Below are positions 21,408 through 42,490 of a DNA stretch of 42,573 bases, piece by piece; within the stretch, counting starts at the first letter, position 1, and each line of letters begins with the position of its first letter. Source of the DNA: Persephonella sp. (GTDB lineage: Bacteria > Aquificota > Aquificia > Aquificales > Hydrogenothermaceae); NCBI GenBank assembly GCA_027028005.1, contig JALVKE010000047.1, positions 1-42,573 on the forward strand, given 5' to 3'. The notes below the pieces were generated by a model that was not told the origin of the DNA, ran no database searches, and was given only the letters and a program-made list of their open reading frames with translations. A program made the position numbers and the translations under genes.

Positions 21408-24400
21408 ATGCACTTTTTCAGATATACAATCTTAGCTTTACTTATTGTATATACTTCTTTTGCTATAACTCCTGCAGGAATATTGATTTCAAATACTGCG
21501 AAAATAGAATATGAAGATAAAGATGGATTTAAATACAAAGAGCTTTCAAATACAGTATCTGTTAAAGTTTTACAGGTGTATGGAATAGATATATATCCTA
21601 ATTACCAAACTATAACAGCCCTTCCAAATAGTTATATATACCTTTCTTACAGACTAAAAAATACAGGAAACGGAGAAGATAGGTATACCCTTAATGTAAA
21701 GAATGAAGTTACAGATGATACAGATATACAAGATCTAAAGATATTTATTGATAAAAATGAAAATGGAAAACTTGATCCTGGAGAACAAAGATACGATAAT
21801 GCTAATCCTCCTGTAATAGAGGCAAACGGCTATGTCCCTCTTTTAGTTGTAGGAAAAACTTCTAATACCAACGGTATATCAAAAGTTAGATTGGAAGGTG
21901 TTTCTTTAGGAAACGATAAAGTTTCTGATACAGAAAATATTGCAGAGATAAAGTTAGAGAAAAATAAAGCATTTGATGTAACAAAGAATACAGGTAAAAC
22001 AGAAGTTTTTCCTGGAGAGAAGATAGACTTTACAATTCTTGCAGAGAACAATGGAACAGAAGTTGAAAAAGGGGTAAACATAGATACAGATATTGACAAT
22101 GATGGTTCTCCTGAAACACTAAAGGGAGTTCTTATAGAAGACAAGATTTCTAAGTATTTATCTTTTATATCAGCTTCAAAAGCACCTGTTAACAGTAAAG
22201 TTTTATATAAAGGAGATAATGACTCATATTGGAAAGATGATATAACAAAGATAACAGGCCCTCTTAGATATATAGGTTTATTTATAAACTCTTTAGATCC
22301 TGACCAGCAGGCAAAACTAGATTTAATATTTAAGGTTCATGAAGATACACCTGCAGAAAATATTGATAATATTGCTGTGTTAAAAACATCTGTAGGAGAT
22401 ATTAACTCAAATATAGTGACAGTGAAAATAAAAGAAAAACTTGCTATATCAATAGACGATACAGATGATAATGACTCTTTTACTGGAAGTAACAGATATA
22501 CAGACAGTGATGACAGTATGATTATCTATAGCATGTCCTCAGGGAAAGGTTTGTATGTTGATTTTATAAATGAGGCTTGGAATTTAGGAAATAAAGAACA
22601 GGTAATAAATATTACCTGGGACAAGGGAAGCTCAAAGAATATAGACCCTAATATTATGCATGTTACTTTCCTTGATATAAATGGAAATCCTTTAACAGAT
22701 ACAAATAACGATGATTATATAGATGTGGGAATAGTTAAGCCAGGAGAAAGGGTTAAGTTTATTACAAGGGTTTATGTTGAAGAAAGAAGCTTTAAAGATG
22801 TTGTTATAGCCGTAAAAGGTTTCACAGAAAATGTAACTGATTTTACATTTGATATTATAAAAGACATTCAGCCAGCTACAGCAAAAGTAAAGGTTCTTAC
22901 AACAATTCAAACAAAGCTAGGCTTCGAACCTTTAAGAAAGCATCGTGTTGCTGTTTTTGAGTTTGATAATGATGGAAAACTTTTAAGTAAAAAACCTGCT
23001 ATCTTATGGACAGATGAGAATGGTTATATTCTCTATGATAATGAAGGAAACATAAAAACCCTTTATGATGTTTTAGAAGATAATAAAAAATACAGAATTA
23101 CAGTTTATGGAAAATATAAAGATAGAGAATACACACTCTCTCCTTATATAGAAAAAAGATTCTTTGATGCTGTAGAAAATACTGGAGAGGAAAAATGCTG
23201 GAACAGAACTGGTTTAGAAATCCCCTGTGATGATAAGAGAAAAGATATTGTCAGGATAAAAGTTCTCTCTGATGGTACTAAAGAGCTACAGTTTCCCCTT
23301 GATCCAGCAGGTTATGTTTACGATTCCTTAACAAATGAAAGAATAGAAAATGCTTGTGTTTATTTCTTTAGATGTAGTGATGAAACATGCAACACATATA
23401 TTCTTGTAGACAATGATCTTTTAGACCTACATACAAATCCTGTAACAGGATATCAAACAAATCCACAGTTAACATCAAAAAGCTATACATTAGACAACGA
23501 TGCAATATTTGAATTTGTATTTAGAAACTTTGTTCCAGCATTAAGAGGATGGTATTTCTTAGAAGTTGATTTTAACTGTATAGGATCAAATCCAGCATTA
23601 AAAGATAAATATACACCTATAAAACTTCAAAAAGATAAAATATGGGACCCTTATAATTATAAACCTTATCGTGGAGAAAAATTCTATATAGATGAGACCT
23701 TCCCACAGTCCATTCCTGTTATTATACCTCTTGGAAGACCTGCTAATGGCAAGTTAATTGTTGAAAAATCTGTATATCCTTCAATTGCATCAATAGGAGA
23801 CTTTGTTAAGTGGAAGATCACTGTTAAAAATAAAGGTACATCTCCTGTTTTTGATATAGATACTACTGATTACTTACCAAGAGGTTTTAGATACAGAAAT
23901 AACACAACAAAGATAGAGGGTAATTCCAGTTCAGATCCTCTAGTTTCTTCCAATGGAAGACGTTTAACATGGACTATAGGGAATCTAAATCCAGGAGAAA
24001 GTAAAACCATAGAGTTTTACACATCTATTATAACTTCTGTGCAAGAGGGAAGATTAAAAAATATAGCGTATGCAGAAGGTTGGAGTGATAATCTTCATAC
24101 GTCAAAGATAAGATCCAATGAAGGATTTGCTTATATAAAAATAACTAAAGGTATATTTACAGATAAAGGCTACATCTTTGGAAAAGTTTTCATAGATCAG
24201 AATAAAAATGGGATACACGATGAAAATGAACCTGTGATAAAGGGAGCAAAAATATATCTAGATAATGGTAGATATGCAGTAACAGATATAGAAGGTAAGT
24301 ATCACTTTGATAATCTAAACCCAAGAACATATGTGGTTAAGATAGATAAAGCTTCTATACCAAAAGGAGCAAAACTTCTTATAACAGGAAATAGAAATGC

Positions 24401-25175
24401 AGGAGATCCTTCAAGTGTTTTTGCAGATGTATATCCTGGGGAGATGCATAAAGTAAACTTTGCACTAGCACCGTTTAAACCGGAGATGGAAATATTCCAA
24501 ACAGTGAAAAAAATCAAAGGAAAAATAAAGATTGAGAGAGGAATTGAAGATATACTTGTAGATCCTATAGATGAAAAAATAAGAATAAAGAATTTTGTTT
24601 TTATAAAGAACAATACAGATAAACCTATCTATGAAGTTGCCTATATAGAAACATCCTCTGCAATACCTCTTAAAGGAACATCTTACATAAATAGTTCTCC
24701 TTTTAAAGATCCACAGATAAAAGGAAATACATTTAGATGGAATATTCCTCTTATTCTTCCTAAAGAAAAAGTAAAGATAACATGGCTAAGTGCTTATAAA
24801 GGGGAAAAATTAGAGCCAAAAGCAAAAATAAGCCTTAAGCTGAATCCTTCAGATAAGGATGTATTTATACCTGTTAATATTCCTGTTGAGTTTAAACCTA
24901 TAAGTAGCGGAACCTATAACGTTACAGTTTACTTTGACTTTGGAAGTTCTCAGCTTACAGATGAGGCAAAAAGATCTTTAATGAAAGTAGTAAACTTTCT
25001 AAAAAAACACAAGTTTACACATGTTTATATAAATATAAAAGGACATACAGATGCTGTTAGAGTTGTAAATCCAAAGATAAAAACAAATACAAATCTATCA
25101 TTGCTTAGGGCAGAGGCTGTGAAAGCTTTTCTAAAAAAACATTTAGTAGATTTAAAAAGGGTTGAGATAAGATGA
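21408..25175 (+). CDS. DUF11/SdrD-like surface protein with C-terminal OmpA-like domain (1255 aa)
   Basis: DUF11 motifs, SdrD-B-like FGKVFIDQNKNGIHDENEPVIKGAKIYL, OmpA-like VYFDFGSSQLTDEAKRSL...GHTDAV. Confidence 0.82.
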   Translation: MHFFRYTILALLIVYTSFAITPAGILISNTAKIEYEDKDGFKYKELSNTVSVKVLQVYGIDIYPNYQTITALPNSYIYLSYRLKNTGNGEDRYTLNVKNEVTDDTDIQDLKIFIDKNENGKLDPGEQRYDNANPPVIEANGYVPLLVVGKTSNTNGISKVRLEGVSLGNDKVSDTENIAEIKLEKNKAFDVTKNTGKTEVFPGEKIDFTILAENNGTEVEKGVNIDTDIDNDGSPETLKGVLIEDKISKYLSFISASKAPVNSKVLYKGDNDSYWKDDITKITGPLRYIGLFINSLDPDQQAKLDLIFKVHEDTPAENIDNIAVLKTSVGDINSNIVTVKIKEKLAISIDDTDDNDSFTGSNRYTDSDDSMIIYSMSSGKGLYVDFINEAWNLGNKEQVINITWDKGSSKNIDPNIMHVTFLDINGNPLTDTNNDDYIDVGIVKPGERVKFITRVYVEERSFKDVVIAVKGFTENVTDFTFDIIKDIQPATAKVKVLTTIQTKLGFEPLRKHRVAVFEFDNDGKLLSKKPAILWTDENGYILYDNEGNIKTLYDVLEDNKKYRITVYGKYKDREYTLSPYIEKRFFDAVENTGEEKCWNRTGLEIPCDDKRKDIVRIKVLSDGTKELQFPLDPAGYVYDSLTNERIENACVYFFRCSDETCNTYILVDNDLLDLHTNPVTGYQTNPQLTSKSYTLDNDAIFEFVFRNFVPALRGWYFLEVDFNCIGSNPALKDKYTPIKLQKDKIWDPYNYKPYRGEKFYIDETFPQSIPVIIPLGRPANGKLIVEKSVYPSIASIGDFVKWKITVKNKGTSPVFDIDTTDYLPRGFRYRNNTTKIEGNSSSDPLVSSNGRRLTWTIGNLNPGESKTIEFYTSIITSVQEGRLKNIAYAEGWSDNLHTSKIRSNEGFAYIKITKGIFTDKGYIFGKVFIDQNKNGIHDENEPVIKGAKIYLDNGRYAVTDIEGKYHFDNLNPRTYVVKIDKASIPKGAKLLITGNRNAGDPSSVFADVYPGEMHKVNFALAPFKPEMEIFQTVKKIKGKIKIERGIEDILVDPIDEKIRIKNFVFIKNNTDKPIYEVAYIETSSAIPLKGTSYINSSPFKDPQIKGNTFRWNIPLILPKEKVKITWLSAYKGEKLEPKAKISLKLNPSDKDVFIPVNIPVEFKPISSGTYNVTVYFDFGSSQLTDEAKRSLMKVVNFLKKHKFTHVYINIKGHTDAVRVVNPKIKTNTNLSLLRAEAVKAFLKKHLVDLKRVEIR

Positions 25176-28100
25176 AAAAAGTAGGATTAACATTTTTAGG
25201 AACTTCTTTAGCATTTGCTAATGCCTTTGGAGAGGGCTTACAGAAGGTATACTCTATACAGATAGGAGCATACAGTAAGAAAGAAAATGCAGAAAGGGCG
25301 CTAAAATCACTCCCCAAAGAGCTAAAAAAAGAAGCTTTCATATATGTTAATGAGGAAGGTTTCTACACGGTAAGAATTGGAAAGGCAAAGAGCTATAAGG
25401 ACATATTAAGAGAAAAGAAACTTTTAAAAAGATACAAAATAAAAGGTTTTATATCAAAAACTCTTATAGCAAATGAGAGGAAAAAACAGGTAGCTAATAA
25501 ACCAAAATCAGAGAAAAAAACTAAAGGTACAGAGATAGCAACTCCTTCAAAATTTTACTCAATCCAGTTGGGAGCTTTTAGCACAGAGTATAACGCTTTA
25601 AAGTTTATTAAAAGACTGCCAGAAGAGTTAAGAAATTTAGCGTTTGTATATAAAAATAGAAAAGGTTTTTATACAGTAAGAGTTGGAAAGGTTGGAAATA
25701 CAAATCTTTTAAAACCATTAAAAGCTTTACTGAAAAAGTATAGATTAAAAGGTTTTGTTGTAAAAACAGAAGTAAAGCAAAGATATAAACCAGAAAAAGA
25801 AGAAGCTATAATTCAGGTAAAAAAAACAGTAAAAGGAAAAGAAATTGCTATTACTAATGCAGATAAAATTGTTTCTCAAAAAAAGAGAATCAAACCAAAA
25901 AAACCAACAAATGTCTATTCAATCTTAGTAGCTATAACAACAAATAAAGATATAGCAAAGGAAATAGCTAATGAATATAGGCAGAAGTTTTCTCTAAAAA
26001 CATTTATAAAAGAAAAATATGTAGGATTAGGCAAAAAAGAATACTATGTTTATCTTGGCGAATTTACTTCTGAGAAAGAAGCAAGAAAATTTATGGAAAG
26101 AAACCTGAAGGGTCATTATCCCATTGAGATTATTGAAACACATGTAGAAAAAGAGGATATTCTATATAAAGAGGCTGAAAAACCTCTTCTAAAAAAACAA
26201 AACGAACTAGATAAAAGCAAATATACCTCTAATGAAGAACTAAAAGCTATATACTCTATCCTTGTATTGAAAACAAAGGATAAAAAAGATGCAGAAACAT
26301 TAAAAACATCTCTAGAAGCAAAGTTTCCAGATAAAAAGGTTTATATAAAAGAAAAGATACTAGAGTTCAAAGAAAAAGAATACTACGTTTACCTTGGTGA
26401 GTTTTTATCTCCAGAAGAAGCAAAAAGGTTTGCCCACAGATTTGGTATAAAAACAGAAAGTATAGATGTAATAGAGTATGTAGATATAGAGAAAGATAAA
26501 ATCAATGGTAAAGAAACAGTAATAAAAGAAGAGGCAAAGGATACATTAGAACCTGTAGTTGAGAATAGAATATCTCCAGAAGGAACACCTGAAAACAGGA
26601 GAGCTGAGATAACTGTAATTCCTTTTAGTACATCCGCTAAAGAGATTGATTTATCTAATTACATAGATAAAGGTATATATATCCTTAATATATGGTTTCC
26701 CAAAATTCATTACCTTGAAAAGATCAAAGATGTAGCTCTTATATTCAAACCTCCGAAAGGTTTTAGTTATGTGTTAAATAGTGCAGTATTAAATGATAAA
26801 CATGTGTATCCAAGGAAAGTAGGAAATTATTACATTGTAAAAATTCCTGAGATAAAAGGATCACAGGAGATAGACTTTAAACTTCAGTTTCTTGTAAAAA
26901 ACAAAATAAAACTTGAAAATATGCCTGTCTTTCTCATAGCAAAGGATCAGGCAGGACATCCTATAAAGATATATGGATTTGATAAGTTTAAAGAAGAAGC
27001 TAAAGAAGTTTTAAATATATATGAAAATAAAAATATTATACATCCAGCAACTGTAAAGAAGACTGTAACAACAGGTATTATCTATCCTGAAAAAGACACT
27101 ATTCAAGTTAAAGAAACAACAGATATAGTTGTAGAAGTTCCTAAAGATGCTAGATATTTTCTCTATGTAAACGGAAAAAGAGTAACAAAGTCGCATATTG
27201 GGGAAGAGGTAACAAAAGGAAATGTAAAAACAATAAAGTATGTAGGAATAAAACTTGAAAAAGGTGAAAATGAAGTATTACTGAAGATAGACGGAAAAGA
27301 ATACAAAAGAAAGATAACAGTATCTGACATAGTATCAAAGATAAGGGTAAATGTATACCCTGAAAAACCACAGGCAGATGGAAAAACACCAGTTTATGTA
27401 AGTATTGAACTTCTAGATAAGGACGGCGTTCCTATAAAAGATACAACATTTGTTGAAGTGTATGTTGATAAAGGTGATATATGGGATGAATCAACAGGAG
27501 AGTGGATAAAAGTAGGAAGTGAGCCTTTAAAAGTTAAGGCTTATAACGGAAAAGCTGTAGTAAAACTTTCTCCAGCTTCATCAACAGAAGAGAGAAGACT
27601 CAAGATTTTTTATGGAGAGATAGAGAAGGAATATACAGTCAGATTTTATCCAGAAAAAAGACCGTGGATTGTTGTTGGTAATCTTGAAGGAGGTGTAGGA
27701 ATTGGAGATACAAAAAACAATCCTCAGCAGACAAAAATGCCTTTTAAACATAAAGATGGAACAAGATTAGAAGGGAAAGGTTCTGTATTTGCAAAAGGAA
27801 GTGTGAAAAACTATACAGTGACATTAAGATACCAGACAGAAAAACCTGATAATGTTCTTATGAACCAGAATATACCTTCAACAGAAGAAAATCAGTATTA
27901 CCCTGTTTATGGAGATGATACAGAGCAGTACTTTGAGGCAAGAAGTAAAAACAGGCTTTTCCTTAAGGTAGAGAAAGACCTTTCATATCTAATGTTTGGA
28001 GATTACACAACAAACATAGGTTCTGACCTTGAGTTTAATAGATATAACAGAACATTCAATGGATTAGACCTTAATCTCCAAAAAGATAAGGATTACAGAA

Positions 28101-29998
28101 TTCAGAGTTTTATAACAAAGAATGGACAGGAGCAGTTAAAAGAAGAATTCCAGGGAAAAGGAATATCTGGACCTTACTTCTTTAAAAATCCTGTCAGACC
28201 ATACTCAGAAAGGGTATGGATAGAAACAAGAGACAGATACAATCCAAATATCATAATAAAAAGAGAAGAACTTCACAGATTTACTGACTACACAATAAAT
28301 TATGAAGAAGGCTTTATCATCTTCCACGAGCCTATAAAACAGTACGATGACAACTTTAATCCAAACTATATCGTTACGGTATATGAAACAGATGATCTTC
28401 AGGAAGAAAAATACACATATGGATTAAGAGGTGAAAAAAGCTTCTTAAATGGAAATCTAAGATTTGGTCTAACAGGAATAAAAGAAGAACACGTTTTAAC
28501 AGATAAAAAGCTTTACGGTGCAGATGTTTTATATGAAACAGATAAACTTAGACTTTTAGGGGAGATCTCAAGAACAGAAACAGATAATGATGGAGTAGCT
28601 GGGAAAGTAGAAGGTAGATATACCTTTAATCAGTACTTTTCTGTAGGTGGTTACTACAAAAGAGTACAGGAAGGATATCAGAACTTGTCTGCTGTAACTG
28701 CAGATCAGGGATATGAAACATACGGAGCAAACATTACAGCAACAACAAAAGATGGAAAAACAAGAGTAACAGCTGAAGGAGTTGTAGAAAATAGGGATAT
28801 AGACAGAAAAACTGGAAGCTTAATGTTAGACCATAAGGTAAATAATAAGCTTTCTTTTACTCTTGGTGGAAGAATTCATAAAGAAACCAATACATTAGGA
28901 ACAGATACAAGAGCATTAGCTATAGCAGGACTAACATACAAGCCAACAGAAAAACTTTCTATATCTCTAAGAAGAGAACAGGCTATAAAAAAAGACATAG
29001 CAAGTGCCTATTATCCAACAAGAACAATAGGTAGGGTAGACTACAGATTTTCAAACTGGTTCAGTTCTTACCTGCAGTCTGAGTATCAGGAAAGAGCTGA
29101 CAAAGATGTTTCTCTAACAACATTAGGACTTGAAGGAAGACTAAAAGAAAATACAACAGCCTTCTCAAAATATACCATAGACGACGGAGCAAGTGGATGG
29201 AGAACCCAGTCCCACATAGGTTTAAACCATCTATTTAAGATAACAAATAAGCTAACAGGAGATATATCTGTTGAGAATGTTAATACTTTCTCAGGTGATG
29301 ACACTGGAGACTACACAGCTTTAGCAGTAAGAGGAGCTTACCTGCAAAACAAAAGGTACAAGCTTTCAGCAGGATATGAAATAAGATTTGGAGATTTTCA
29401 ACCTAATCACCTTCTCACCCTTGGGGGTATAACAAAGGTAGGAAAAGCAGGAACTCTTCTATTGAGAGAGAGATACTTTAAAAATGAAAAACAGCAAAAT
29501 GACTTACTACTTGGCTTTGCTTACAGACCTGTTGAAAGTGATGTATGGAACTCTCTGTTTAAGCTCAGATGGAAGTATGCAAAGGGAGAGCTTTACAATA
29601 ACAAATACATAGGTTCTTTCCATCTTAACATTCAACCAAATAGAAAACTAAGAACAGCATGGCAGTACGCTTTCAAATATACTTCAGGAGGTTCAATAGG
29701 AAACTCTTTCATAGATCTTTATAGAGGAAGATTTTCTTACGATATAACAGACAGAATTGATATAGGTGCCCATGGTGGTATCCTCTGGGATCACAAGAAT
29801 AAAAACTATTCTTATGCTTATGGTCCAGAAATTGGATACACACTATTTAGAAACTTCTGGATAAGCCTTGGATACAACGTTCAGGGCTTCCATGATGATG
29901 ACTTTGAGGAAGCTAACTACTGGGCAAAAGGTGCTTATTTGAAGTTCAGATTAAAGTTTGACGAAGATTTATTCAAAAAAATTTTTAATGAAAAATAG
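25172..29998 (+). CDS. Multi-SPOR, Ig-like (Big/invasin-type) and outer-membrane beta-barrel protein (1608 aa)
   Basis: Signal peptide; four SPOR-like repeats; VNVYPEKPQADGKTPVYVSIELLDKDG Ig-like motif; ~700-aa amphipathic beta-strand C-terminus (GDYTTNIGSDLEFNRYNRTFNGLDLNLQ...); ATGA overlap with upstream gene. Confidence 0.78.
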   Translation: MKKVGLTFLGTSLAFANAFGEGLQKVYSIQIGAYSKKENAERALKSLPKELKKEAFIYVNEEGFYTVRIGKAKSYKDILREKKLLKRYKIKGFISKTLIANERKKQVANKPKSEKKTKGTEIATPSKFYSIQLGAFSTEYNALKFIKRLPEELRNLAFVYKNRKGFYTVRVGKVGNTNLLKPLKALLKKYRLKGFVVKTEVKQRYKPEKEEAIIQVKKTVKGKEIAITNADKIVSQKKRIKPKKPTNVYSILVAITTNKDIAKEIANEYRQKFSLKTFIKEKYVGLGKKEYYVYLGEFTSEKEARKFMERNLKGHYPIEIIETHVEKEDILYKEAEKPLLKKQNELDKSKYTSNEELKAIYSILVLKTKDKKDAETLKTSLEAKFPDKKVYIKEKILEFKEKEYYVYLGEFLSPEEAKRFAHRFGIKTESIDVIEYVDIEKDKINGKETVIKEEAKDTLEPVVENRISPEGTPENRRAEITVIPFSTSAKEIDLSNYIDKGIYILNIWFPKIHYLEKIKDVALIFKPPKGFSYVLNSAVLNDKHVYPRKVGNYYIVKIPEIKGSQEIDFKLQFLVKNKIKLENMPVFLIAKDQAGHPIKIYGFDKFKEEAKEVLNIYENKNIIHPATVKKTVTTGIIYPEKDTIQVKETTDIVVEVPKDARYFLYVNGKRVTKSHIGEEVTKGNVKTIKYVGIKLEKGENEVLLKIDGKEYKRKITVSDIVSKIRVNVYPEKPQADGKTPVYVSIELLDKDGVPIKDTTFVEVYVDKGDIWDESTGEWIKVGSEPLKVKAYNGKAVVKLSPASSTEERRLKIFYGEIEKEYTVRFYPEKRPWIVVGNLEGGVGIGDTKNNPQQTKMPFKHKDGTRLEGKGSVFAKGSVKNYTVTLRYQTEKPDNVLMNQNIPSTEENQYYPVYGDDTEQYFEARSKNRLFLKVEKDLSYLMFGDYTTNIGSDLEFNRYNRTFNGLDLNLQKDKDYRIQSFITKNGQEQLKEEFQGKGISGPYFFKNPVRPYSERVWIETRDRYNPNIIIKREELHRFTDYTINYEEGFIIFHEPIKQYDDNFNPNYIVTVYETDDLQEEKYTYGLRGEKSFLNGNLRFGLTGIKEEHVLTDKKLYGADVLYETDKLRLLGEISRTETDNDGVAGKVEGRYTFNQYFSVGGYYKRVQEGYQNLSAVTADQGYETYGANITATTKDGKTRVTAEGVVENRDIDRKTGSLMLDHKVNNKLSFTLGGRIHKETNTLGTDTRALAIAGLTYKPTEKLSISLRREQAIKKDIASAYYPTRTIGRVDYRFSNWFSSYLQSEYQERADKDVSLTTLGLEGRLKENTTAFSKYTIDDGASGWRTQSHIGLNHLFKITNKLTGDISVENVNTFSGDDTGDYTALAVRGAYLQNKRYKLSAGYEIRFGDFQPNHLLTLGGITKVGKAGTLLLRERYFKNEKQQNDLLLGFAYRPVESDVWNSLFKLRWKYAKGELYNNKYIGSFHLNIQPNRKLRTAWQYAFKYTSGGSIGNSFIDLYRGRFSYDITDRIDIGAHGGILWDHKNKNYSYAYGPEIGYTLFRNFWISLGYNVQGFHDDDFEEANYWAKGAYLKFRLKFDEDLFKKIFNEK
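25247..26479 (+). repeat. Four SPOR-like domains (approx. 25247-25462, 25553-25768, 25913-26140, 26249-26479)
   Basis: Repeated (V/F/I)YSI(Q/L)...(Y)(T/Y)V(R/Y)(I/V/L)G pattern in the translation; repeats 1+2 and 3+4 form two similar pairs. Confidence 0.7.
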
Positions 29999-30004
29999 AA
30001 ACAG

Positions 30005-33000
30005 ATGAGGACAGGTATGAAGATAACTTCACAAAAATCAAAGTTGGTAGCCTTTTTATTTATTCTTTTACCATTAATAAAAGCTAATGCTATAAATCTT
30101 GATTTTTCAGATAACACTCTTATTAGTTGTAATCATTCAGATAATGATGAAGGTAAATATTGTATTTACAATGTTGCAAGTGGAGTTTATGCGAAAGTAA
30201 AACTTGTAAAAGAGCTTAATGCAGATGTTACACATTTTGATGATAATAACTATGGAGAAGATAAAGCATTTCAGCCTATAGTAATTGGTATAAAAAACAA
30301 AGATTGGGGATACGGCGATTTTGAAATAACATTCTGGAAAGATTCTTCTGCAACACAACCACTTTACTTAGATTTAGTTCAGGCAACAGCTGTTGATGTG
30401 GATGGTGACGGTTCAGGAAGTGAGAAAGAAGGAGCAGGCTTTTTCAACTTTATATCTTATACTTTGGAATCAAATACAAACTTAGATTCTGTGAGACCTT
30501 TTAAGAAAAATAACCTTTATAGATTTTCCTCTTCTAACTATACAAATCAACCAGGAATCGATTATACAAAAACGGAGAATATGGTCTCTGTTCTGTACAA
30601 AAAAGTTCACCTAATCAAATACAGAGCTTATGTTTATAATAATCTTGATTCAGGAAACACAAGTGGAAGACTTTTCTCAATATATTTTGGAGATTCTTAC
30701 AACGGAAATCCTTTTCCTAATTGGTCAAATCCTCAAACTACAAAAGTAGGGATTAGTATCTTAGGAAGAATAATCGAAGATATTAATGGAGACGGTCAGA
30801 TTGATTCAACAGATGTGGGGATAAATAACATTACAGTAAAAGCTTATATGGATGATGGGGATTCAAATCCAGAAAATTCAGAAAGCTACAAGTATAAAAT
30901 AACAACTGGGGAATATAATGGAAAAACAGGTTTTTACTCTTTTACAGTCCCTATTAACAAAACTTACTGGATAGCTGTAAACTCAAAAGATATTCCTGCT
31001 TCAGCAGGTCTAAACTCCAGCTTTTCAAGAGGAGATATATGGGCTGAACAGACATACGGTGGAAATTATGTATTATGTGATACAGATGCTAACTCCTCAA
31101 CAGCTCCTGTTCAGCTTACTCAAGGAGGAGCATGTTTTGGTGGTAGAAATGGGGATAAATCTGACGGCTTTTACGATGATTCCCTCTCTAAAGCTGAGCA
31201 TTTGGCAAAAATAGACGCAAATACATCAGATATAACAGATGTTGATTTTGGATTTTCCTTTAACGTTGTAACAAATATAAACGATCAGGATGACGAAGAT
31301 ATTGACGGAAATAATAGGACGTGTCAGGGATGTTTGAGACAGTTCATACAGAATGCTAATGCTATTTCAGGTCCAAATGCTATGAGATTTGTTCCTACTA
31401 TTCCTATGAATGAATCAAACTGGTGGAAAATAATTTTAAATATCACAGCAGGAGCTTCTGCAGATTCAGATGATTATTCACTTCCACCTATAACAGATGA
31501 TTTTACAATTATAGATGGAACAGCTTATGACTATCAGAATGGAACATCTGTTAGAGATACAAATGCAGGTACAAGCGGTCATAGTGGAGAAAAGGTAGGT
31601 GTTGGAGATGACGGTTTGGAAAATACAGGGGATGAAGCTAAACTTCCTAATTTCAATAAACCTGAACTAGAGATAGACATAGATGGTAGAGGTTTTGGTT
31701 TTACAATAAAAGCTAGCAATATAACCATTAGAAATATAGCTATTCAACATTCTGATGATGATAAACCAGATACAGCTCTTATAAGAGTTGAAAATGGAAT
31801 AGGTAATCTTGTAGAAGGATGTTTTATAGGAACAAAGGCAGATGGAAGTGATCCAAATACAAATTCAAGACTTGGAATAAACACTTTCCATGGAACAACA
31901 ACAGATATAAGAGATAACTATATAGCCTATTTATCTGATACAGGAATTCAGATGGAAGGTGAAGGGGTTGTTGAATACAACGATATATATCGTATTGGCT
32001 ATTCAAATGAATGTGGCGATGGTATATCCACTGAATTTATTTCAAACCATCCTACAGGAACAAGGGATAAGTCTAAATTAGTGTTTAGATACAACAGAAT
32101 AGAAAAAACAGCAGCATACGGTATAGATACTTGGAAATATCCAGGAGCAATGACATCTTCAAATAATACTATTTTAAATACAGGGCAGGGAAATAAAGAT
32201 GGAAATCTATGTGGAAATTCCTCTACAGGTTTTGAGCAGGGAGGAATAAGAGTATTTGGAATAGGAAATGAAATAAAAGAAAATCTTATACATGATGTTC
32301 CTGGAAATGGGATAGTGCTTGCATCAATTGGTAATTCAACGAAACAAAATCTTATATCGAAAAATGTTTTCTATAATACAGGAGGTATATCTATAGATAT
32401 AGATCTAACTCATACCGGTTCTACAGACAATCCAAATGGAGATGGTGTTACTCCAAATAACGGAGTAATAGATGATAACAAGATTAATATAGAATTAGAC
32501 TATCCTGTAATAACTTTAGCAGAAGTATCAGATGGGACCTTACACATAACTGGGTATATAGGTACATCTTCTCAAAAGATAACAGGAGATCACAAGATTG
32601 AGATATATAAATCAGATGACGACGGCAATAATAACGGAGAAATAGAACAAGGAGATGGAAAATCTGTAGCTCATGGAGACGGTAAATATTATCTAGGACC
32701 ATGTATAACAAAAAATGATGGAACATTTGACTGTTATGTATCTATCTCAAATGTTAATCTATCAAATGGAGATACAATTACAGCCACAGCAATTGATTCT
32801 AATAACAACACATCTGAATTTGGACCAAATACACGTGTTCAAATATCTTCAAATGCAAAAACAATTTCAGGACATATTTATGAAGATTTAAATGGTGATG
32901 GAGATCCATCAGATAAAAAAGCTCTTGAAAATGTAGTTGTTAAACTGTATGACTCTTCAGGAACTGAACTTGAAACGGCAGTTACAAATGCTAAGGGAGA

Positions 33001-36000
33001 ATTCTCTTTTAGTGTTTCTGCAAATGGGGATTACTATATTGCTGTAGATTCAAAATCTATATTACCTTCAGCAGGATTTAACAGTGGGTACAATCAATCT
33101 GATGTTTGGGCAGAACAAACATATGGTCCAGCAGGTTCTTACTGTGATAAAGATGCTAATTCTTCAACTGATCCTTTAGAACTTTCTAAAGCAGATGTTT
33201 GTTTTGGAGGCAAAAATGGAAATAAATCAGATGGTCTAAATGATGGAAATGGAAATTATGATTTTACAAAAGCTGAGCATGTTGCAAAGGTTACAGTTTC
33301 AGACAGTGATGTTTCAGGTTTAGATTTTGGATTTTCTTTTAACGTTGTAACAAATGTGAATGATACTGATGAAGATCCTAACAACAGCAGAACCTGCCAA
33401 GGATGTTTTAGACAGTTTATACAAAATGCCAACGCTATTTCTGGCCAAAACACTTTAAGGTTTGTTCCTACTGTTCAGGCTAACAAAACTAATTACTGGA
33501 GTATAACAACTGATAGAAGAATGTCAGATTCAGACCCTTACTCAACAGATAATACAGAACCTATTTTTAGAATAGAAGATAAAGATACTACTATAGATGG
33601 AACAGCTTACTCTTATAAAGATGGAACTACTATAGTTGACAAAAACTCAGGAACTATAGCTGGAAAAACGGTAGGGTATCTTAATACCTGCTCTATAGAC
33701 GCTTTTTCAAAACCTGAGCTAGAAATATTTACAAATGCAAGATACATAGATGATAACAACGAAAGTGCAGCATGGGATCCATACAATAATGGTGCTTCTG
33801 CATCAATATTCTATGTAAAAGGATCAAACTTTAAACTAAAAAACATCTCTGCCTACGGTGGACATTATGTTGTTTTTGTTGATGAAGCAAATAATCCAAA
33901 AATCAAAGATAACTTTCTAGGTATTCCAGCTTCAGGTCTTAAAGATCCAGGTGAAGGAAAACGTTCAAACAGAGGTGTAGCTGTTACTAGAGAAAATCCA
34001 GATAATACAATAGGATTAGTAGAACATAACCTTATTGGTTATACGCGCCTCCATGGAATTTTTACCTACAAGTTTGATGGTCAAAACAATTTCATAATAA
34101 GAGACAATATTGTTTCCAATTCAAGCCGCGGCTGGAACCATGAAAATGGTATAGGTCTTGAAGAAGGGACACAGAGAATAAAAGTTACCTGTAACTATGT
34201 GGACAGTTCCTGCGGTGTAGGTATAGAAACATGGAAATCTAATGGAGAACATACAATAGAAAGTAATACTGTTGAAAGTAACGGTCTTGAATGTGCAGAA
34301 AATACAGGTGGAGAAGAGAAAATAGGTATAAGAATAACATCTAGTGACAATATTATCAGGTACAACAAAATTATTAACAATAAAGGTCCCGGTCTAATGG
34401 TCGCTTACGACAGGGATAGAGGATTTAATCCTGAAAGAAACCTAATCTCCCAAAACTCCTTTGAAAATAATGAAAAAGTAGGAATAGATCTACTGAAAAA
34501 TGGTGAAGATATTCATGGAATTTATCCTTCAGGAGAATCTGGAGTTACACCAAACAACGGACAAAAAGATACAGATATAGGAAACAAAGGTTTAGACTAT
34601 CCTGTCTTAACATTGGCCTCTCTTTCTGAAGGAAAACTTCATTTAGAAGGTTACATAGGAAAAAAAGATAACAAACTGAAACCTTTATCAGGTAAAACAT
34701 GGATTGTAGAGATATATAAAGCTAAAGACGATGGTAATAATAATGGAGAAATAGAAGAAGGGGACGGAAAATCTGTAGCTCATGGAGAAGGTTATGAATA
34801 TTTAGGTTCTATAACCCTTTCAGATACAGATTTTAATAGTAAAAATAATTTTTCAAAAGATCTAGCAGTTAGTGGTTTAAGCGTTGGAGATAAGATTACA
34901 GCTATAACTATAGATGAGAGTAATAACACTTCCGAATTTGGTGGAAATACAAAAGTTGTTAGCAACGTTATTTACGGATATATCTATCACGATGGATATA
35001 ATCCTGAAAATCAATCTTTTATAAGACCTAATGGAAACAAAGACAGTTATGAAGAGTGGAAGGATAAAAATACTGCCCCAACAGTTTATATAAAACTGTG
35101 TGATAAAAATGGAAATGTTGTTGATGTTAAAGAAATTTCCGATGGAGATGGATTTTATAAATTTGAAAATGTTCAAAATGGAGTTTATATCTTAGTAGAA
35201 GATACAGATAACAATACAAATAACTGTTCTCCTTCTGATCCTTCACAGTGGATTTCAACGACACCAAACAGTATAAACGTTACTATAAACAATAGATCAA
35301 TTAATGTTAACTTTGGAGATTTTCATGGTTCAAAAATTACAGGATATGTATTTGATGATAAAGGGGATGGAACAACTAACTCCTCTTATGCAAATAACGG
35401 ACTATTTAACTCATCTGTTGAAAAAGGAATAAAAGGCGTTGAAGTTAAGGTATGTCAATCAAAAGACTGTTCTTCTTTTATAGATAAAACAGAAACTAAT
35501 AAAGATGGAGAATATACTCTTTACATACCTTATGATAGTAATTATGAAGGAAAAACTTTTTATGTTGTTGAAAAAGATAATATATCTTTCATATCAACAG
35601 GAAATACAAAAGATAATATTTCATCTTATAAAAATCCAAATAATTCAACAGTAGAAGAGAGGAATATTATTGATTTTGTTAATAATGCTGGAAATACTTA
35701 CAACAACTACAATTTTGGAGATGTAAAAAAGGTAAATATACAGCCTGAGCATTCATATACAGTTCCTTCTGGTAGCAGCCTTACAATAAAACATACAGTA
35801 ACAATAAATTCACCAGGAAAAATTTCTGTATCTCTAATTAGTGAAAAAAATCTTGTATATCTTGTTTATGATGATCCTAACTGTGATGGAAAAGCAGATG
35901 GAAATCCTATAAATCCTGTAGATAGCCTATACTCACTAAACAGCGGCAATTCAATTTCTGCTGATACAAACTACTGCCTTATACTTAAAACGGTAATACC

Positions 36001-36526
36001 AACTGATATACAGGATGGCTCAGTAGACAAGTTAAAGATAACGGTGTTTGAAAACTGGATAAACACAGAACAGGAAATAGATGATAATGACTTAGTAACA
36101 GATACTATAACCATCGCAAGTCAAGAGAACGGTCTTATTTATTTAGAAAAAGTTGTTAAAAATGTTTCTCAAAATGGTAATTACTCAAAAAGAAATCAGG
36201 CTAAACCTTGCGATGTATTAGAATACAAAATCTCCTTCAAAAATATAGGTTCTAGAAAGGTAAAAGAACTTGTTATTAGTGATAACATACCAATAACAAC
36301 AGAATTTAAATATGCTTCATACAATGGAAAAGATGTAAAAGTTGTATTTGGTAATGATAAGTACACAGGTAACACTTCAGATAATCCAGATATAGATGGT
36401 ATAACTCTTGAAAATGATGCATTGAAGGTAAATGTGAATAAAGTAATCGGGAAAGAATTTATAGAACCAGGGGAAGAAGGATATATTCTTTATCAGGTAA
36501 AAATAAAAGGAAACAACTGTGAATAG
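30005..36526 (+). CDS. Giant surface protein: duplicated SdrD-like + beta-helix module, SdrD-like domains, C-terminal DUF11 (2173 aa)
   Basis: Signal peptide; repeated RTCQGC(L/F)RQFIQNANAISG and FGFSFNVVTN(I/V)ND; SdrD-like GYVFDDKGDGT; DUF11-like QAKPCDVLEYKISFKNIGSRKVKELVISDNIP. Confidence 0.8.
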   Translation: MRTGMKITSQKSKLVAFLFILLPLIKANAINLDFSDNTLISCNHSDNDEGKYCIYNVASGVYAKVKLVKELNADVTHFDDNNYGEDKAFQPIVIGIKNKDWGYGDFEITFWKDSSATQPLYLDLVQATAVDVDGDGSGSEKEGAGFFNFISYTLESNTNLDSVRPFKKNNLYRFSSSNYTNQPGIDYTKTENMVSVLYKKVHLIKYRAYVYNNLDSGNTSGRLFSIYFGDSYNGNPFPNWSNPQTTKVGISILGRIIEDINGDGQIDSTDVGINNITVKAYMDDGDSNPENSESYKYKITTGEYNGKTGFYSFTVPINKTYWIAVNSKDIPASAGLNSSFSRGDIWAEQTYGGNYVLCDTDANSSTAPVQLTQGGACFGGRNGDKSDGFYDDSLSKAEHLAKIDANTSDITDVDFGFSFNVVTNINDQDDEDIDGNNRTCQGCLRQFIQNANAISGPNAMRFVPTIPMNESNWWKIILNITAGASADSDDYSLPPITDDFTIIDGTAYDYQNGTSVRDTNAGTSGHSGEKVGVGDDGLENTGDEAKLPNFNKPELEIDIDGRGFGFTIKASNITIRNIAIQHSDDDKPDTALIRVENGIGNLVEGCFIGTKADGSDPNTNSRLGINTFHGTTTDIRDNYIAYLSDTGIQMEGEGVVEYNDIYRIGYSNECGDGISTEFISNHPTGTRDKSKLVFRYNRIEKTAAYGIDTWKYPGAMTSSNNTILNTGQGNKDGNLCGNSSTGFEQGGIRVFGIGNEIKENLIHDVPGNGIVLASIGNSTKQNLISKNVFYNTGGISIDIDLTHTGSTDNPNGDGVTPNNGVIDDNKINIELDYPVITLAEVSDGTLHITGYIGTSSQKITGDHKIEIYKSDDDGNNNGEIEQGDGKSVAHGDGKYYLGPCITKNDGTFDCYVSISNVNLSNGDTITATAIDSNNNTSEFGPNTRVQISSNAKTISGHIYEDLNGDGDPSDKKALENVVVKLYDSSGTELETAVTNAKGEFSFSVSANGDYYIAVDSKSILPSAGFNSGYNQSDVWAEQTYGPAGSYCDKDANSSTDPLELSKADVCFGGKNGNKSDGLNDGNGNYDFTKAEHVAKVTVSDSDVSGLDFGFSFNVVTNVNDTDEDPNNSRTCQGCFRQFIQNANAISGQNTLRFVPTVQANKTNYWSITTDRRMSDSDPYSTDNTEPIFRIEDKDTTIDGTAYSYKDGTTIVDKNSGTIAGKTVGYLNTCSIDAFSKPELEIFTNARYIDDNNESAAWDPYNNGASASIFYVKGSNFKLKNISAYGGHYVVFVDEANNPKIKDNFLGIPASGLKDPGEGKRSNRGVAVTRENPDNTIGLVEHNLIGYTRLHGIFTYKFDGQNNFIIRDNIVSNSSRGWNHENGIGLEEGTQRIKVTCNYVDSSCGVGIETWKSNGEHTIESNTVESNGLECAENTGGEEKIGIRITSSDNIIRYNKIINNKGPGLMVAYDRDRGFNPERNLISQNSFENNEKVGIDLLKNGEDIHGIYPSGESGVTPNNGQKDTDIGNKGLDYPVLTLASLSEGKLHLEGYIGKKDNKLKPLSGKTWIVEIYKAKDDGNNNGEIEEGDGKSVAHGEGYEYLGSITLSDTDFNSKNNFSKDLAVSGLSVGDKITAITIDESNNTSEFGGNTKVVSNVIYGYIYHDGYNPENQSFIRPNGNKDSYEEWKDKNTAPTVYIKLCDKNGNVVDVKEISDGDGFYKFENVQNGVYILVEDTDNNTNNCSPSDPSQWISTTPNSINVTINNRSINVNFGDFHGSKITGYVFDDKGDGTTNSSYANNGLFNSSVEKGIKGVEVKVCQSKDCSSFIDKTETNKDGEYTLYIPYDSNYEGKTFYVVEKDNISFISTGNTKDNISSYKNPNNSTVEERNIIDFVNNAGNTYNNYNFGDVKKVNIQPEHSYTVPSGSSLTIKHTVTINSPGKISVSLISEKNLVYLVYDDPNCDGKADGNPINPVDSLYSLNSGNSISADTNYCLILKTVIPTDIQDGSVDKLKITVFENWINTEQEIDDNDLVTDTITIASQENGLIYLEKVVKNVSQNGNYSKRNQAKPCDVLEYKISFKNIGSRKVKELVISDNIPITTEFKYASYNGKDVKVVFGNDKYTGNTSDNPDIDGITLENDALKVNVNKVIGKEFIEPGEEGYILYQVKIKGNNCE
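30752..34960 (+). repeat. ~2.1-kb internal duplication (about 30752-32860 and 32861-34960)
   Basis: Collinear protein motifs: IIEDINGDGQ/IYEDLNGDGD, SAGLNSSFSRGDIWAEQTYG/SAGFNSGYNQSDVWAEQTYG, CQGC(L/F)RQFIQNANAISG, YKSDDDGNNNGEIEQGDGKSVAHG/YKAKDDGNNNGEIEEGDGKSVAHG. Confidence 0.9.
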
Positions 36527-41170: not shown

Positions 41171-41987
41171 TTGGCAATACCAATTTTTGTAAATGAATTA
41201 TTTCTAGACAATCGACAAACTGTTTTTTAATAAATCGAAAAATAAACGTTTTCTCGCAAATTTTTCTTAATTAATGGCAGATATCATTTTCTAGAGCGGA
41301 GTTATTTCCAGGAGGTATAATCATGAAGTTCATTGTAAAAGTATATCGTCGCAATACCACTAAAAAGTGGTATATACCCAAAACTGATGTTAAACTGACT
41401 ATTCCAATAAATCGCAAAAATAACATTTTCTCGTGAGCTTTACTTGATAAGGGCTAATACCACTTTCCAAAGCGGGTTAATTTTAGTTAATAACCCGTCT
41501 CTACGGAGGTAGGTTAGAAGCCTAGCAGTCGCAATACTCTAAAAAAAGGTAAATGCCTCAAACTACCGTTAAACCGTTTTTTCTGAAAACTGCAAAAACA
41601 AACTTTTTCTCAATTAGTTTACTTGAGTAAAGGCAGATAACATTTTCCGAAAGCGGGTTAGTTCTAGTGAGATCTCCACAGGGGATATAGAGGATTACTT
41701 ATCCTGTCGCAATACCCTAAAAATGGTAAATGCCCTTGAATACCGTCAATTCGTTTTATTTTCCAGAAGCTGTAAATACAAACTTTTTCTCTCTAAATTG
41801 CTTGATTAAGGGCAGATACCATTTTCTGTAAGCGGGTTAGTTCTAGCGGCCACCCGACTGTTAAAATCCTGGGGCTGTGTCGCAATACCCTAAAGAGAGC
41901 GGGTTAGTTCTAGTCCTGCTAATACTTCTTAGCATCGGAGTTCCGATTTACAGTCGCAATACCCTAAAGAGAGCGGGTTAGTTCTAG
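41171..41987. repeat. Composite tandem repeat array: degenerate unit 41171-41311; units A 41348-41486, B 41528-41667, C 41706-41846 (139-141 nt); truncated units D 41879-41913 and E 41953-41987 (35 nt, identical); unique spacers 36/41/38/32/39 nt
   Basis: Conserved ends GTCGCAATAC(C/T)CTAAA ... AGCGGGTTAGTTCTAG counted directly from the sequence; conserved internal inverted repeat in A-C. Confidence 0.92.
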
Positions 41988-42208
41988 AGCTAGTATTTAT
42001 TAGTATTAGCGAGGATTTTAGTAATGCAAACTATTTGCAAAAACCGGCTTAATCTTACTCAAGCGCTTAAATATCAAGCGTTAGCTCATTTTCGATATGC
42101 AGGACAAGACATATCGCTTTGTTATATTTTTATAATTTAATTTTTCTTTGCTTTTCAATAGCTTATAAAAATCTTAGTTTAGTTTTATCAAATTTTTTGT
42201 CCAATTTT

Positions 42209-42230
42209 AAATATGATCTAGATCATATTT
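42209..42230. promoter_or_regulatory. Perfect 22-bp palindrome with FNR/CRP-family-like core (TGAT-N4-ATCA)
   Basis: AAATATGATCTAGATCATATTT, intergenic. Confidence 0.5.
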
Positions 42231-42490
42231 TTAGTTTCCCTATTCCTTTGCCAAGTTATAAAAAATTATAACAAAGTTTTATAAAAATAATAACTAAAGT
42301 TTTTCTTAGTGATACTCGGCTCTTTAAAGCTGATTATTAGTAAATATCTGTTAATTGATCTTTCTACAGGATTTAATAAAAAAAATCGACCTTTTATTAT
42401 AAAGAAGCGAGAATTACCTAGTTATTTAAACTAAAAAATCTAGCTTTATGGTATATTATTCTTAATCTTCCTTAGCTTGCAGGAGAGTTT

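What the first reader, a model, noticed from the sequence alone, without database searches (positions are those of the whole stretch)
41171..41987. Unclassified composite repeat array: ~140-nt and 35-nt units separated by 32-41-nt unique spacers
Seen directly: three units (A 139, B 140, C 141 nt) start GTCGCAATAC and end AGCGGGTTA(G/A)TT(C/T)TAG. A degenerate 141-nt unit precedes them. Two 35-nt units (GTCGCAATACCCTAAAGAGAGCGGGTTAGTTCTAG) keep only the two ends. Spacers of 36, 41, 38, 32 and 39 nt share no obvious sequence. The spacing is CRISPR-like, but the repeat is far too long and exists in two size classes. There is no cas gene, integrase or transposase in the window. The units do not encode a conserved ORF because indels break frame. 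Inference: this could be a structured-RNA array, a non-autonomous element array, or a guide- or site-like system not yet described.
Basis: partly seen in the sequence, partly recalled or inferred. Interest (0 to 1): 0.88.

Follow-up and report, generated by a model that had tools for sequence, protein, structure and literature searches.

The report
CRISPR array with hairpin-swollen old repeats
This is a bacterial immune-memory (CRISPR) array from a vent bacterium in which the newest repeats have the normal 35-letter length while almost every older repeat carries an extra, structure-forming hairpin of about 105 letters in its middle, an arrangement found in three related species and, as far as I could find, not described before.

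Summary
It is a CRISPR array. The 35-nt unit (S) is the CRISPR repeat. It belongs to the repeat family of this genome's own Cas1-linked arrays, and in another genus an ordinary short-repeat array of that family sits directly beside an orthologous cas2/cas1/cas1'/cas2 module. The ~140-nt units (L) are the same repeat with ~105 nt forming a long hairpin, inserted in the loop of the repeat palindrome. Six such arrays, each with a shared ~250-bp leader, are dispersed in this genome; one adjoins cas1/cas2. Two further species of the genus have the same layout. In 13 of 13 arrays holding both classes, S lies on the leader (new) side and L on the old side. The hairpins show compensatory changes and are copied between arrays independently of leaders and spacers. 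Best reading: older repeats acquire or exchange the hairpin in trans, while the leader-proximal repeat must stay 35 nt for Cas1-Cas2. The direction (gain in old repeats versus loss at the leader) and any function of the hairpin are inferred, not shown.

The parts
41171..41311 (-). unit 0: degenerate distal-most long (L) repeat, 141 nt
   Evidence: R1 hit 41178-41311, E 1.7e-8
41312..41347 (.). spacer 1 (36 nt), identical in the array on contig C43
41348..41486 (-). unit A: long repeat, 139 nt; 100% identical copy in C43
41487..41527 (.). spacer 2 (41 nt), identical in C43 and C121
41528..41667 (-). unit B: long repeat, 140 nt; same hairpin type in C43, C149, C179 and in species G002
41668..41705 (.). 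spacer 3 (38 nt), unique
41706..41846 (-). unit C: long repeat, 141 nt; hairpin-bearing part about 41722-41830
41847..41878 (.). spacer 4 (32 nt), unique
41879..41913 (-). short (S) CRISPR repeat, 35 nt
41914..41952 (.). spacer 5 (39 nt), newest
41953..41987 (-). leader-proximal short (S) CRISPR repeat, 35 nt
41988..42235 (-). CRISPR leader (transcription inferred leftward, on the minus strand, into the array); 84-95% identical among 6 loci of the genome, also found in two other species
42209..42230 (.). palindrome AAATATGATCTAGATCATATTT (CRP/FNR-like, by eye) inside the leader; related sites in the other leaders
42176..42203 (-). promoter-like TGGACA-N16-TAAACT pointing into the array; promoter-like sites are at chance level in the region

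Best explanation
The window holds a cas-less CRISPR array of a Persephonella-like bacterium (genus group of Persephonella sp. M17), one of six dispersed arrays that share a leader and a 35-nt repeat (S). Spacers are added at the leader end by a Cas1/Cas1'/Cas2/Cas2' adaptation module, one copy of which adjoins the array on contig C179. In this genus older repeats carry a ~105-nt hairpin in the loop of the repeat palindrome, turning S into L (about 140 nt). The hairpin is copied in trans between repeats of the dispersed arrays, by insertion into S or by gene conversion between units. The leader-proximal repeat stays 35 nt, because Cas1-Cas2 measures the repeat and an array whose first repeat becomes L stops growing. 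Both repeat ends, including the presumed 5' handle ATTGCGAC, are kept, so spacers next to L could still give crRNAs. Shown: CRISPR identity (about 0.95 sure taken alone), S/L homology, order, hairpin covariation, sharing of hairpin types across arrays. Inferred: direction S to L, the ruler as cause, continued crRNA production.
For: CRISPR identity: arrays at C147 and C327 of the same genome have the repeat GTCGCAATACCCTTATTAAGCGGGTCAGTTTCAAG beside cas1. C179 has two cas2, a Cas1-like ORF in two frames and cas1 just beyond the leader of a window-type array. In G024 (another genus) the same module adjoins an ordinary array GTCGCAATACCCTCAAAACGGCGGGTCAGTGCCAG; Cas1 48%, second Cas2 46%, Cas1' 37% identical. 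The genome encodes Csm1. L = S + hairpin. Three species. S always leader-side. Covariation: 18 double-changed cells against 6.3 +/- 1.8 in shuffles, 0/500; slid controls at most 11. Trans copying: hairpin type D 99.3% identical in C44 and C121, where leaders are 84.8% and both flanking spacers are unrelated; shared spacer 2 is followed by type B in C43 and C47 but type D in C121. Ruler: PMC6895254.
Against: L lies next to the leader in G001 C171 and C29, so a leader-proximal L can exist (C29 has a shortened leader; C171 has no spacer-repeat unit beyond it). No target duplication, no transposase and no hairpin copy outside arrays were found. Hairpin types occur once per array, not in runs as a simple wave of insertions would give. 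A Cas1 of this kind was not found in G001 or G002, but both genomes are 83-85% complete. No spacer matched a phage.
Confidence: 0.6

Rival explanations
1. L was the working repeat: a hairpin entered the repeat once in the ancestor of the genus, arrays grew by copying L, and the leader-proximal unit later lost the hairpin (L to S) in each species, spreading by recombination between arrays.
For: Old L units carry unique spacers at normal spacing. Right ends of S resemble right ends of L within a species (GTCGGG in G002, GTAAGC in C61). L is next to the leader in G001 C171 and C29. Internally shortened L units exist.
Against: Needs independent recent loss in three species, each time to exactly 35 nt and always at the leader. 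Neighbouring L units of one array differ by 18-38% or more while same-type units in other arrays mostly differ by 1-12%, which copying of the array's own first repeat does not give. Type D is shared by C44 and C121 without the leader.
Confidence: 0.25
2. The hairpin is a selected part of the pre-crRNA: long repeats form a long RNA stem that changes processing, stability or protein loading of crRNAs from older spacers. (Can be true together with the best explanation.)
For: Compensatory changes in the stem. The strand read from the leader folds better than its complement in most units, and G-U pairs outnumber A-C on that strand, 33 to 11.
Against: The G-U excess rests largely on one column (16 to 11 without it). 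Stems are also kept in hairpin DNA elements. Nothing shows transcription, and distal units decay.
Confidence: 0.3
3. A MITE-like element that targets CRISPR repeats, moved by a transposase elsewhere (transposition in the narrow sense).
For: Constant insertion point in the repeat loop, hairpin with complementary ends, subfamilies shared among arrays. A single MITE in a CRISPR spacer is on record in Haloquadratum (PMC3119063).
Against: No copy outside CRISPR repeats in the genome, none in phages or plasmids, no recognisable target duplication.
Confidence: 0.2
4. Ordinary local duplication or assembly artefact.
For: All genomes with the feature are fragmented metagenome assemblies; the own assembly shows 8% contamination.
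Against: Found on many contigs of three assemblies, in different gene contexts, with the same order and covarying stems.
Confidence: 0.02

Closest known systems
Type III CRISPR arrays of Aquificota (repeat family GTCGCAATACCC...CGGGTYAG, as at C147/C327 and in G024)
   Same: 35-nt repeat with the same ends, spacers of about 32-51 nt, leader next to the newest repeat, Cas1/Cas2 nearby, Csm1 in the genome
   Different: Those arrays have only short repeats; window-type arrays have ~140-nt hairpin repeats on the old side and are dispersed, with cas genes seen at only one of six loci
Leader-end spacer acquisition with a repeat-length ruler (type I-E, I-B, II-A; PMC6895254)
   Same: The leader-proximal repeat is the site of integration and its length matters
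   Different: Ruler shown there with changes of 1-3 nt and in other types; never tested with a 105-nt hairpin or with this Cas1-Cas2
MITE insertion in a CRISPR array (Haloquadratum walsbyi HqIRS37, PMC3119063)
   Same: Small structured element inside a CRISPR array
   Different: There one copy in a spacer; here one specific site inside nearly every older repeat of many arrays in three species, and no copy elsewhere

Membership tests
CRISPR array | Short direct repeats (about 21-50 nt) with a partial palindrome | tested here: met
   S: 35 nt with an ACCC/GGGT stem. L units, at about 135-146 nt, do not meet the length
CRISPR array | Unique spacers of near-constant length | tested here: met
   32-42 nt in the own genome and G001, 32-51 nt in G002; unrelated except copies shared between arrays
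CRISPR array | Conserved leader at one end, next to the best-kept repeats | tested here: met
   distal units degenerate
CRISPR array | Association with cas genes | tested here: met
   cas2, cas2, cas1', cas1 beside the C179 array; orthologous module beside an array of the same repeat family in G024
CRISPR array | Spacers match mobile elements | tested here: inconclusive
   a set of spacers of the own genome and G002 against INPHARED, and 3 spacers against IMG/VR: no match
CRISPR array | Transcribed and processed into crRNAs | not testable with these tools
   no RNA data
Type III CRISPR-Cas system | cas10/csm1 in the genome | tested here: met
   Csm1 at C197 (with further csm-like ORFs) and C82; link to these arrays by repeat similarity only
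MITE (hairpin insert) | Dispersed copies at many sites | tested here: not met
   all significant copies in the genome lie in CRISPR repeats
MITE (hairpin insert) | Terminal inverted repeats and target duplication | tested here: inconclusive
   complementary ends yes; no clear duplication by inspection of S and L junctions
Integron attC array | attC sites with an integron integrase | not tested
   no genome-wide integrase search; spacers are too short for cassettes and Rfam gave no hit

The most novel reading that the evidence does not exclude
Programmed repeat maturation: a CRISPR-specific machinery, possibly the second Cas1'/Cas2 pair of the module, installs a structured hairpin into each repeat after it leaves the leader-proximal position. 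This would seal old units against re-use by Cas1-Cas2 and give dispersed arrays 140-bp homologies through which they recombine and exchange spacers.
Probability: 0.15. Interest if true: 0.9.

Novelty: new variant of a known kind. Interest (0 to 1): 0.66.

Why it matters
CRISPR repeats are taken to be short and uniform within an array, and detection tools assume it, so arrays like these are likely to be missed or cut. Here repeat length depends on repeat age: short at the leader, four times longer behind it, in three species. That gives a natural test of what fixes repeat length during spacer acquisition, of whether Cas6-type processing tolerates a 105-nt insert, and of how dispersed arrays exchange spacers. 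If the hairpin is mobile, it would be an element whose only home is the CRISPR repeat.

Tried and rejected
Rfam scan of 40.9-42.6 kb: only a sub-threshold hit, none to the array. Hairpin as a dispersed MITE: no copies outside arrays, none in plasmids or phages beyond short chance matches. Tight coupling to the rpn (PD-(D/E)XK) genes that follow several arrays: a minority of rpn genes have an L unit next to them, so rpn is probably carried along. Phage origin of spacers: no match in INPHARED or for three spacers in IMG/VR; S-like repeats absent from IMG/VR. L as a strictly linear copy of the array's own first repeat: rejected by between-array against within-array identities. Promoter scan: at chance level. 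Literature searches found no account of such repeats, in an open-access library only.

Full report
Observation. The six units and five spacers are present exactly as described. The 35-mer occurs seven times in the genome, without a match of the reversed control.

Where it is. The window is contig C47 of a fragmented genome. The nearest named relative with the same leader is Persephonella sp. M17 (JALWKR01), here called G002. A third member of the genus is G001.

Other loci. Six loci in the own genome (C43, C44, C47, C121, C149, C179) carry arrays of the same kind. At each, the last unit is the 35-nt S, followed by a leader of about 250 bp that is 84-95% identical among loci. Long units (L) lie on the far side.

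Why it is CRISPR. C147 and C327 hold plain arrays with repeat GTCGCAATACCCTTATTAAGCGGGTCAGTTTCAAG next to cas1, with a TM1812-family gene at C147 and a SAVED-domain gene at C327. This repeat and S share both ends and the palindrome. At C179, two cas2 genes, a Cas1-like gene split over two frames and a full cas1 lie just behind the leader of a window-type array. In G024, a nearly complete genome of another genus, orthologues of all four genes adjoin an ordinary array with repeat GTCGCAATACCCTCAAAACGGCGGGTCAGTGCCAG. Short repeats are therefore the ordinary state, and L is derived in this genus. Csm1 genes (type III-A) are present at C197 and C82.

What L is. Alignment of 23 L units shows S-like ends (about 16 nt on each side) and a variable middle, 104-110 nt longer than S in most well-kept units. 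Read from the leader, the middle folds into a long hairpin starting about 20 nt from the unit's end. With 18 units of three species, 89.7% of pair cells are standard pairs; 18 cells are changed on both sides against 6.3 +/- 1.8 in shuffles, and slid structures give at most 11. Related sequences inflate such counts, but the G001 stem is built from different letters and still pairs. Whether selection acts on RNA or DNA is open: G-U pairs exceed A-C 33 to 11, but 16 to 11 without one invariant column.

Distribution. A covariance model searched in 136 Aquificota genomes finds L only in this genus, in all three of its genomes. G001 has its own repeat, ending GGGTAAGAGCAAG, in both its S and its L, so S and L ends change together within a species.

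Order. In all 13 arrays with both classes (own genome six, G002 three, G001 four) every S lies on the leader side of every L. The leader-proximal unit is S in 16 of 18 arrays. The exceptions are G001 C29, whose leader is shortened, and C171, which has no further unit.

Turnover. L units fall into types that are mostly 88-100% alike in different arrays, while neighbours within an array are mostly 62-82% alike. Types keep the same distal-to-leader order across arrays. Type D is 99.3% identical in C44 and C121 although their leaders are 84.8% identical and the spacers on both sides are unrelated. Spacer 2 is identical in C43, C47 and C121 but is followed by type B in the first two and type D in the third. 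C43 and C47 share a tract from the middle of unit 0 to unit B, and then diverge. Hairpins thus move between arrays separately from leaders, by insertion or by conversion.

Interpretation. S is best read as the working repeat at the leader, and L as older repeats that have received or exchanged a hairpin. Work on type I and II systems shows that small insertions in the first repeat shift the second integration site (PMC6895254), which would explain why the first repeat stays short. That is an analogy, not a test on this system. Loss of the hairpin at the leader is the main rival; it needs parallel recent losses to exactly 35 nt in three species.

Limits. All three genomes are fragmented metagenome assemblies. 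No RNA data exist here. Spacers had no database match. The literature library is open-access only, so 'not described before' is a statement about that library.

Noticed in passing
L037:7453-11659 (contig C179, minus strand): Adaptation module with two Cas2, one normal Cas1 and a second, diverged Cas1-like protein whose frame is interrupted in this assembly; followed by a 616-aa membrane protein with a weak LeoB match. An uninterrupted orthologue of the second Cas1 is in L172 (G024).
   Followed up: partly
L032:4510-7769 (contig C327): A SAVED-domain protein (531 aa) preceded by two ORFs in the order expected of CalpS and CalpT, beside a CRISPR array: probably a Calp signalling set (named from memory of Calp systems plus the SAVED hit).
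   Followed up: partly
L036, L037, L051, L064, L065, L066: PD-(D/E)XK rpn-like genes (sub-threshold TIGR01784 matches, many per genome) lie just beyond the old end of several arrays; C43 keeps a remnant of such a gene.
   Followed up: partly
window 42209-42230 and the other leaders: CRP/FNR-like palindrome AAATATGATCTAGATCATATTT in the leaders; related palindromes in the leaders at C147, C327 and in G024. The arrays may be under global metabolic control.
   Followed up: no
L035 (C121) and L050 (G002 C69): Both arrays sit beside glnA, so at least one array position predates the split of the two species, yet no spacer is shared.
   Followed up: no
L032:1909-3084: A 391-aa ORF that looks like an IS605-type TnpB/OrfB (by eye only), about 4.8 kb from the C327 array.
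   Followed up: no
window 21408-36526: Three consecutive very large ORFs (1255, 1608 and 2173 aa); the last has parallel-beta-helix-like and SdrD-like stretches by eye.
   Followed up: no
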